Positions 59,143 to 61,033 of a DNA stretch of 64,000 nt are shown one piece after another. The translations under genes were made by a program, and so were the position numbers. The DNA comes from Lentisphaerota bacterium (GTDB lineage Bacteria; Verrucomicrobiota; Lentisphaeria; Victivallales; Victivallaceae). The notes beneath the pieces are model-generated. The model was not told the DNA's origin. It made no database searches and was given only the letters and a program-made list of their open reading frames with translations. Positions within the stretch are counted from its first letter, which is position 1; each line of letters opens with the position of its first letter. The DNA lies in NCBI GenBank assembly GCA_015061885.1, contig SUVS01000005.1:1-64000 (forward strand). The letters run 5' to 3'.

Positions 59143-59188
59143 CTGAAAATACGAGTTTTCAAATCCCATCTGCCGTTTTTTATAAAAT
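59143..59188. repeat. 46-bp direct repeat, copy 1 (left boundary of tandem duplication)
   Basis: CTGAAAATACGAGTTTTCAAATCCCATCTGCCGTTTTTTATAAAAT; near-identical at 60065-60110 and 60988-61033. Confidence 0.9.
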
Positions 59189-59247
59189 AGGTTGCGGGGT
59201 GGACGTTGTATTATTTTCTATAATTACGCTTGCAAGATGACGGGGCA

Positions 59248-59628
59248 TTACTGCTGCTTTTCAGTTTGAGAGTTTGTTCTGTATTTTTTCAGATGGGGTT
59301 GTTTTTTCACCAACTCCCCCCAAAGCATTTCCGGTATTTTATCAATTACCGGACAGCGATCTATAAGTGACGGTTGTTCTTCCAGCAAAAAACACCATTC
59401 AATATAACTGAATTTATGCAATGGTGCGATCCCGGCAAATTGGATGTTGTCGGTAATCAATCTGACCCACTCCAGCGTGGTAAATTCGCTCCAGCGGCGG
59501 CAATGGGCAGCCAACTGCGGGGTAAACCGTATTGCCCGTATCCACAAATCGCGGCATTCGGCTTCTTTTTTCAGGCATTGTTCCAAAGAGTCAATATCCG
59601 CATTATTCAATCCGGCGTACTTATCCAT
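59248..59628 (-). CDS. Small W-LL-QP helical-repeat protein, copy 1
   Basis: Start MDKYAGLNN after AAGGA; ~24-aa units (TTLEWVRLITDNIQFAGIAPLHKF / SYIEWCFLLEEQPSLIDRCPVIDKI / PEMLWGELVKKQPHLKKY). The longer ORF start (59748) lies inside the RNA/terminator. Confidence 0.7.
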   Translation of the reverse strand: MDKYAGLNNADIDSLEQCLKKEAECRDLWIRAIRFTPQLAAHCRRWSEFTTLEWVRLITDNIQFAGIAPLHKFSYIEWCFLLEEQPSLIDRCPVIDKIPEMLWGELVKKQPHLKKYRTNSQTEKQQ

Positions 59629-59648
59629 GCTGTTCATCCTTACAGAAT

Positions 59649-59676
59649 AAAAAAAGGCACATTCCGAAAAAGTGCC
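59649..59676 (-). terminator. Intrinsic terminator between structured RNA and small ORF, copy 1
   Basis: Minus strand GGCAC-TTTTTCGGAAT-GTGCC-TTTTTTT. Confidence 0.75.
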
Positions 59677-59805
59677 CTCATCTACGTCTGCAACAACGCA
59701 ACAAATCCACACAAGATCGAAATGTGCCAAACCACACGGTTTGGGCACACCGATTCCAAAAATGGATTTGTTTACGCCATCTTTTAAGTTGCAGTTTTGA
59801 TGAGG
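59676..59805 (-). ncRNA. Candidate structured leader/small RNA, copy 1
   Basis: Nested perfect helices: CCTCATC/GATGAGG, CTGCAAC/GTTGCAG, ACAAATCCA/TGGATTTGT, apical TGTGCC(C)AAACC-GTGT-GGTTTGGCACA; followed by an intrinsic terminator. Confidence 0.6.
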
Positions 59806-60064
59806 ACGTTTACAATCAGTTTGCCAAATCTTTTATCCGGTTATTTTTTTGTTTTTTACCTCAAATATTTTTTACAGAGATGCTCTATGCACCTGCTGTT
59901 GAATATAATTTATATTAAAACCCCGTAATTTCAAATATAATGCAACTTGAATTTGCAAAAAAGTGATACAAAATATCGCCGGAACAGTCTATTGGCAACA
60001 TTGTCTGCTCTATATCCGGCTTGAAGAGTGAAGATATTTACCTCTGTTGGCTTGTTGATACATA

Positions 60065-60110
60065 CTGAAAATACGAGTTTTCAAATCCCGTCTGCCGTTT
60101 TTTATAAAAT
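60065..60110. repeat. 46-bp direct repeat, copy 2
   Basis: CTGAAAATACGAGTTTTCAAATCCCGTCTGCCGTTTTTTATAAAAT. Confidence 0.9.
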
Positions 60111-60170
60111 TAGGTTGCGGGGTGGACGTTGTATTATTTTCTATAATTACGCTTGCAAGATGACGGGGCA

Positions 60171-60551
60171 TTACTGCTGCTTTTCAGTTTGAGAGTTTGT
60201 TCTGTATTTTTTCAGATGGGGTTGTTTTTTCACCAACTCCCCCCAAAGCATTTCCGGTATTTTATCAATTACCGGACAGCGATCTATAAGTGACGGTTGT
60301 TCTTCCAGCAAAAAACACCATTCAATATAACTGAATTTATGCAATGGTGCGATCCCGGCAAATTGGATGTTGTCGGTAATCAATCTGACCCACTCCAGCG
60401 TGGTAAATTCGCTCCAGCGGCGGCAATGGGCAGCCAACTGCGGGGTAAACCGTATTGCCCGTATCCACAAATCGCGGCATTCGGCTTCTTTTTTCAGGCA
60501 TTGTTCCAAAGAGTCAATATCCGCATTATTCAATCCGGCGTACTTATCCAT
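60171..60551 (-). CDS. Small W-LL-QP helical-repeat protein, copy 2
   Basis: 100% identical translation to 59248-59628. Confidence 0.7.
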   Translation of the reverse strand: MDKYAGLNNADIDSLEQCLKKEAECRDLWIRAIRFTPQLAAHCRRWSEFTTLEWVRLITDNIQFAGIAPLHKFSYIEWCFLLEEQPSLIDRCPVIDKIPEMLWGELVKKQPHLKKYRTNSQTEKQQ

Positions 60552-60571
60552 GCTGTTCATCCTTACAGAAT

Positions 60572-60599
60572 AAAAAAAGGCACATTCCGAAAAAGTGCC
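60572..60599 (-). terminator. Intrinsic terminator, copy 2
   Basis: Same as 59649-59676, offset 923. Confidence 0.75.
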
Positions 60600-60728
60600 C
60601 TCATCTACGTCTGCAACAACGCAACAAATCCACACAAGATCGAAATGTGCCAAACCACACGGTTTGGGCACACCGATTCCAAAAATGGATTTGTTTACGC
60701 CATCTTTTAAGTTGCAGTTTTGATGAGG
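60599..60728 (-). ncRNA. Candidate structured leader/small RNA, copy 2
   Basis: Same as 59676-59805, offset 923. Confidence 0.6.
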
Positions 60729-60987
60729 ACGTTTACAATCAGTTTGCCAAATCTTTTATCCGGTTATTTTTTTGTTTTTTACCTCAAATATTTTTTACAG
60801 AGATGCTCTATGCACCTGCTGTTGAATATAATTTATATTAAAACCCCGTAATTTCAAATATAATGCAACTTGAATTTGCAAAAAAGTGATACAAAATATC
60901 GCCGGAACAGTCTATTGGCAACATTGTCTGCTCTACATCCGGCTTGAAGAGTGAAGATATTTACCTCTGTTGGCTTGTTGATACATG

Positions 60988-61033
60988 CTGAAAATACGAG
61001 TTTTCAAATCCCGTCTGCCGTTTTTTGTAAAAT
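60988..61033. repeat. 46-bp direct repeat, copy 3 (right boundary, no following unit)
   Basis: CTGAAAATACGAGTTTTCAAATCCCGTCTGCCGTTTTTTGTAAAAT. Confidence 0.9.

What the first reader, a model, noticed from the sequence alone, without database searches (positions are those of the whole stretch)
59143..61033. Tandem-duplicated cassette (structured RNA + terminator + small repeat-protein gene) bounded by three 46-bp direct repeats
Two ~923-bp units sit head-to-tail between three copies of CTGAAAATACGAGTTTTCAAATCCCRTCTGCCGTTTTTTRTAAAAT, each of which contains the small dyad TGAAAA-TACGAG-TTTTCA. The internal ORF frames are identical between units. The few SNPs and one 1-bp indel are clustered near the repeat boundaries. 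The pattern (repeat-cassette-repeat-cassette-repeat) suggests copy number can expand or contract by recombination at the 46-bp repeat, or that the repeat is a specific integration site. The distinguishing SNPs argue against a simple assembly duplication.
Basis: partly seen in the sequence, partly recalled or inferred. Interest (0 to 1): 0.85.

Follow-up and report, generated by a model that had tools for sequence, protein, structure and literature searches.

The report
New leader RNA before accessory genes
The duplicated cassette carries a previously uncatalogued structured RNA that sits just before a small gene, and the same RNA turns up in at least 91 sampled genomes of this bacterial phylum, usually before quite different accessory genes, where it probably acts as a switch for their transcription.

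Summary
The tandem duplication is real: two ~923-bp units differing at four sites, with three 46-bp repeats. The middle repeat is a hybrid of the outer two, the mark of unequal recombination. The dyad occurs nowhere else in the genome, so the repeat is not the interesting part.

The interesting part is inside the unit. On the minus strand a ~165-nt structured RNA ending in a U-run lies directly before the small gene. Covariance models find it in 38 of 79 family genomes (up to 14 copies) and 91 of 390 phylum genomes. Rfam has no match. Its helices covary strongly. The next gene is on the same strand in 129 of 139 cases. The genes are unrelated: W-repeat proteins, EcoRI-type methylases, restriction enzymes, nucleases, zinc-ribbon and ankyrin proteins, glycosyltransferases.

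The hallmark is a long-range helix: the strand closing the apical hairpin (B) pairs with the strand abutting the U-run (D), about 70-82 nt away, and is kept when its sequence changes. I read the RNA as a transcription attenuator in which pairings A:B and B:D exclude each other. Structure and cis-association are shown; switching, its sign and its signal are inferred.

The parts
59143..59188 (+). 46-bp direct repeat R1 with dyad TGAAAA-TACGAG-TTTTCA
60065..60110 (+). 46-bp direct repeat R2, hybrid of R3 (left flank) and R1 (right flank)
60988..61033 (+). 46-bp direct repeat R3
59652..59816 (-). Leader RNA, copy 1 (146.1 bits to model R2)
60575..60739 (-). Leader RNA, copy 2 (146.1 bits to model R2)
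60641..60651 (-). Strand B (GGCACATTTCG), 3' arm of the apical hairpin P4, copy 2; copy 1 at 59718-59728
   Evidence: coordinates counted from the sequence
60579..60589 (-). Strand D (CGGAATGTGCC), abutting the U-run, complementary to B, copy 2; copy 1 at 59656-59666
60595..60599 (-). Strand C (GGCAC), 5' arm of the local hairpin C:D, copy 2; copy 1 at 59672-59676
59248..59628 (-). Small gene, copy 1: 126-aa all-helical W-repeat protein (MDKYAG...)
60171..60551 (-). Small gene, copy 2: identical 126-aa protein
60781..60785 (-). Purine box GAGGT about 45 nt before the RNA, shared by most copies (putative promoter element; role inferred); copy 1 at 59858-59862

Best explanation
The cassette is a gene preceded by a cis-acting leader RNA of a family that is not in Rfam. 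The RNA folds into a long rod (P1, P2, P3) with an apical hairpin P4 (arms A and B) and ends in a U-run. Strand B can pair either with A (hairpin P4) or with D, the strand abutting the U-run about 70-82 nt downstream; B:D crosses P1-P3, so it is a pseudoknot or an alternative state. In many members D can also form a local hairpin with strand C. These exclusive pairings make the RNA a transcription attenuator: in one state RNA polymerase stops at the U-run, in the other it reads through into the gene. B:D is more likely the terminating helix, because it is near-universal and abuts the U-run whereas C:D is often weak; the opposite sign cannot be excluded. Conserved loops around P2 probably bind an unidentified signal. 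The family precedes unrelated accessory genes, including DNA methylases and restriction enzymes. In the window the unit was duplicated by recombination between flanking 46-bp repeats. Shown: RNA, covariation, distribution, same-strand association. Inferred: termination, switching, sign, signal.
For: P1/P2 paired in 99.0% of cells with 377 double-sided changes against 87 in shuffles. B:D paired in 93.1%, 94 double changes against 37, slid versions 24-55%; B is the best complement of D in 105 of 108 and B:D beats the local hairpin in 108 of 108; kept in 47 of 49 distant RNAs at fixed distance with changed sequence; cognate pairs stronger than non-cognate. A:B and C:D covary too. Downstream ORF on the same strand 85:9 and 44:1, upstream gene only 57:31. 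Median distance to the first possible start 32 nt, leaving little room for a separate promoter. 12 of 15 EcoRI-type methylase genes of the family carry the RNA just upstream.
Against: No expression data. The nested fold without B:D is predicted more stable than rod plus B:D in 101 of 108 even before a pseudoknot penalty. Downstream genes share no obvious pathway. A local C:D hairpin in many members would make B:D an antiterminator there. Some copies have no clear same-strand gene (L047:7816, L116, L118).
Confidence: 0.68

Rival explanations
1. The RNA is a free-standing small RNA acting in trans; B:D plus the U-run is its mature 3' end, and the downstream gene lies there by descent or leaky read-through.
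For: Stable autonomous fold and U-run; multicopy and dispersed; a few copies lack a clear downstream gene.
Against: Same-strand association 129:10 with unrelated genes and start codons often within 45 nt.
Confidence: 0.17
2. The RNA plus gene is a mobile cassette: the RNA or its DNA marks the moving unit and the gene is cargo, as in integron-like or transposon-like systems.
For: One RNA before unrelated cargo; up to 14 dispersed copies; tandem clusters at ten loci; direct repeats flank the window unit.
Against: No recombinase found to accompany it and no shared terminal repeat; the 46-bp repeat is unique to this locus. The EcoRI-type methylase association persists across genera, as a regulator would. 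Movement was not tested exhaustively.
Confidence: 0.12
3. RNA-protein pair of the type III toxin-antitoxin sort: RNA antitoxin, terminator, then toxin gene.
For: Same order of parts: RNA, terminator, gene (compare PMC8860590).
Against: The RNA is one ~165-nt unit and not tandem short repeats; the downstream proteins belong to many unrelated families.
Confidence: 0.03
4. For the duplication only: the second unit is an assembly image of an excised circle or strain mixture and not two chromosomal copies.
For: A circle made by R1 x R3 exchange would have exactly the R2 junction; a 99%-identical protein is known only from a 1095-nt contig, about one unit plus 170 nt.
Against: Four differences between the units; other clusters hold clearly diverged copies, such as C77 at 85%, so real tandem copies exist in this genome.
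Confidence: 0.2

Closest known systems
Riboswitch or attenuator leaders overlapping a terminator (e.g. crcB and pfl motifs, PMC2864571)
   Same: Structured 5' leader next to same-strand genes, with a terminator-like end and mutually exclusive pairings.
   Different: No known ligand; controlled genes share no pathway; the helix abutting the U-run draws its 5' arm from an apical hairpin some 60 nt away across P1-P3; no Rfam match.
Processive antitermination leaders (LoaP/dfn hairpin, PMC12691694)
   Same: RNA hairpin and intrinsic terminator in a leader; one subfamily here heads glycosyltransferase loci.
   Different: The known determinant is a small UNCG hairpin acting with a NusG paralog on long operons; here the RNA is ~165 nt and mostly precedes short single genes. 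A NusG paralog was not sought.
Type III toxin-antitoxin (ToxIN, PMC8860590)
   Same: RNA, terminator, then protein gene in one transcript; RNA pseudoknot.
   Different: No tandem short repeats, no common toxin family downstream.
Acido-Lenti-1 RNA (RF01687, PMC2864571)
   Same: A structured RNA reported from Lentisphaerae.
   Different: Its Rfam model, in the library searched, matches no copy tested.

Membership tests
cis-regulatory attenuator leader (riboswitch-like) | Conserved RNA structure supported by covariation | tested here: met
cis-regulatory attenuator leader (riboswitch-like) | Located 5' of genes on the same strand | tested here: met
   85:9 and 44:1; median distance 32 nt
cis-regulatory attenuator leader (riboswitch-like) | Mutually exclusive helices that include the strand before a U-run | tested here: met
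   A:B, B:D and C:D share strands and all covary; B:D persists in distant members
cis-regulatory attenuator leader (riboswitch-like) | Ligand-dependent change of read-through | not testable with these tools
   needs transcription assays
Known Rfam family | Score at or above a gathering threshold | tested here: not met
   also no hit up to E 1 for L240
Type III toxin-antitoxin | RNA antitoxin made of tandem short repeats | tested here: not met
   single ~165-nt structured unit
Type III toxin-antitoxin | Downstream endoribonuclease toxin family | tested here: not met
   unrelated families downstream; no Pfam match for the window protein
Processive antitermination (LoaP-type) | Dedicated NusG paralog | not tested
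   not searched
Repeat-bounded integrating cassette | Boundary repeat recurs elsewhere as solo or occupied site | tested here: not met
   dyad at only three places in the genome
Repeat-bounded integrating cassette | Empty sites in relatives | tested here: inconclusive
   flanking synteny not conserved in congeners

The most novel reading that the evidence does not exclude
A phylum-wide RNA switch class, undescribed until now, that holds horizontally moving accessory and DNA-modification or restriction genes under one transcriptional gate, using a pseudoknotted terminator whose 5' arm sits in an apical hairpin some 60 nt upstream.
Probability: 0.3. Interest if true: 0.87.

Novelty: new variant of a known kind. 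Interest (0 to 1): 0.68.

Why it matters
It adds a widespread, strongly covarying leader RNA class to a phylum whose regulatory RNAs are poorly known. One RNA in front of methylases, restriction enzymes, nucleases, repeat proteins and surface-glycan genes suggests a common gate on accessory genes, and it gives a defined mutagenesis test of how a long-range, possibly knotted helix controls termination.

Tried and rejected
Integration-site reading of the 46-bp repeat: rejected, no other copies in the genome. Rfam families: none at gathering scores; weak hits such as Ysr49 at E 2.1 are taken as chance. Type III toxin-antitoxin: two defining features not met. Pfam family for the small protein: none; its model has no solved relative at E<=0.001 and only weak resemblance to DUF4116 proteins. 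Viral contigs for the W-repeat protein: none confirmed. Empty site in congeners: flanking synteny not conserved. Defence-system models: mostly generic domains (methylase, nuclease, ankyrin), so no defence claim is made. My first reading of B:D as antiterminator only was weakened when distant members kept B:D while about a quarter had a weak local hairpin. Column-by-column B:D counts on the distant alignment A9 failed because columns are out of register, so per-sequence tests were used.

Full report
1. The observation. The window holds two head-to-tail units between three 46-bp repeats. The units differ at four sites, all near the boundaries. The middle repeat joins the left flank of R3 to the right flank of R1, so the present R-unit-R-unit-R most simply arose from R1-unit-R3 by an unequal exchange, or is the assembled image of an excised circle with the same junction. 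The 18-bp dyad has no further copy in the 2.96-Mb genome. Congeners whose records carry names are herbivore-gut Lentisphaeria MAGs.

2. What is in the unit. On the minus strand, in order: a purine box, a ~165-nt RNA with very stable folding (z -5.9), a U-run, and some 20 nt later a 126-aa gene. RNA and gene have diverged paralogs elsewhere in the genome, and comparing them showed the same RNA before each W-repeat gene. The protein is predicted as an all-helical repeat protein (mean pLDDT 88.9); it has relatives in metagenomes, no Pfam match and no close solved structure.

3. A family of RNAs. Eleven copies gave a first alignment with compensatory changes in 19 of 43 pairs. Its covariance model found 57 matches in 15 of 61 relatives and about 110 in 38 of 79 genomes of the family, up to 14 in one genome. 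A model extended with distant members found matches in 91 of 390 genomes and 45 of 194 genera of the phylum at E<=0.001 per genome, where about 0.4 chance genomes would be expected if the (rough) E-values hold. No copy tested matches Rfam.

4. Structure. In 108 distinct sequences P1 and P2 are paired in 99.0% of cells, with 377 double-sided changes against 87 in shuffles; slid versions fall to 25-56%. The apical hairpin A:B (91.2%) and the local hairpin C:D (90.3%) also covary. The unexpected element is B:D: the 3' arm of the apical hairpin pairs over 11 positions with the strand abutting the U-run (93.1%, 94 double changes against 37; slid 24-55%). B is the best complement of D in 105 of 108 RNAs, and B:D is stronger than the local hairpin in all 108. 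In 49 distant RNAs with different sequences in these strands B:D persists in 47 at a fixed distance, and cognate pairs are stronger than non-cognate ones (-19.0 against -13.7 kcal/mol on average). The local hairpin is weaker than -3 kcal/mol in 12 of these 49. B:D crosses P1-P3, so it is either a pseudoknot or an alternative state; energy models do not by themselves prefer it.

5. Context. The longest ORF downstream is on the same strand in 85 of 94 cases in the family set and 44 of 45 in the distant set, whereas the upstream gene is split 57:31. Several of the nine opposite cases contain a recognisable same-strand gene, such as the W-repeat gene of L050 and the EcoRI-type methylases of L165 and L189. 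The median distance to the first possible start is 32 nt. Downstream families include EcoRI-type methylase, staphylococcal nuclease, zinc ribbons, ankyrin, Sel1, M48 and trypsin-like peptidases and sugar dehydrogenases; in distant members also N6/N4 methylases, type III restriction subunits, a SacI-type enzyme and Nmad3. Of 15 EcoRI-type methylase genes with at least 300 nt upstream, 12 carry the RNA there. One subfamily heads glycosyltransferase loci. Head-to-tail clusters occur at ten loci.

6. Mechanism. A structured leader before same-strand genes, ending in a U-run, with exclusive pairings A:B, B:D and C:D, is the anatomy of a transcription attenuator. Because B:D is near-universal and abuts the U-run, whereas C:D is often weak, I favour B:D as the terminating helix and A:B as its opponent; the reverse assignment remains possible, above all where C:D is strong. 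The loops flanking P2 are conserved and are candidates for the signal-binding site. None of the dynamic steps has been observed.

7. Comparison and novelty. It works like a riboswitch or attenuator leader, but no ligand is known and no Rfam family matches. Type III toxin-antitoxin membership (compare PMC8860590) fails on two defining features. The long-range helix and the diversity of the controlled genes make it a new variant of a known kind. Literature searches found no description, but the library is incomplete and supplements were not read.

8. Limits. Most genomes are metagenome-assembled; copy counts in the phylum scans are minima because few candidates per genome were scored; alignments A3, A4, A8 and A9 were fitted to models; ORF strand calls are heuristic; the strain-level copy number of the window repeat is untested.

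Noticed in passing
window 60781-60785 and 59858-59862, minus strand; upstream of most RNA copies: A purine box (RAGGW, e.g. GAGGT or AAAGGA) lies mostly 40-55 nt before the RNA in 76% of 107 copies against 29% of shuffles; it may be a shared promoter or operator element.
   Followed up: partly
L150, L154, L171, L182, L143: A divergent RNA subfamily (B GGCUCAUUUCG) heads glycosyltransferase or acyltransferase loci in five genomes; in four of them a second, degenerate RNA copy appears to follow at once.
   Followed up: partly
L042:7390-8776: Two truncated copies of the RNA 3' half plus the start of the small gene, 440 bp apart, precede an intact unit: decayed tandem cassettes.
   Followed up: no
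L041:8519-8762: After another copy of the small gene lies a 110-bp tandem repeat containing GCAAGATTCGAGTTTTGC, a dyad reminiscent of the one in the 46-bp repeat.
   Followed up: no
L083, L085, L086, L087, L088 (genome G021): Several RNA copies lie within about 600 bp of contig ends, suggesting near-identical RNA-methylase duplicates that broke the assembly.
   Followed up: no
protein P0001: A protein 99% identical to the window's is known only from a 1095-nt contig, about one unit plus 170 nt, as a collapsed tandem repeat or circle would give.
   Followed up: no
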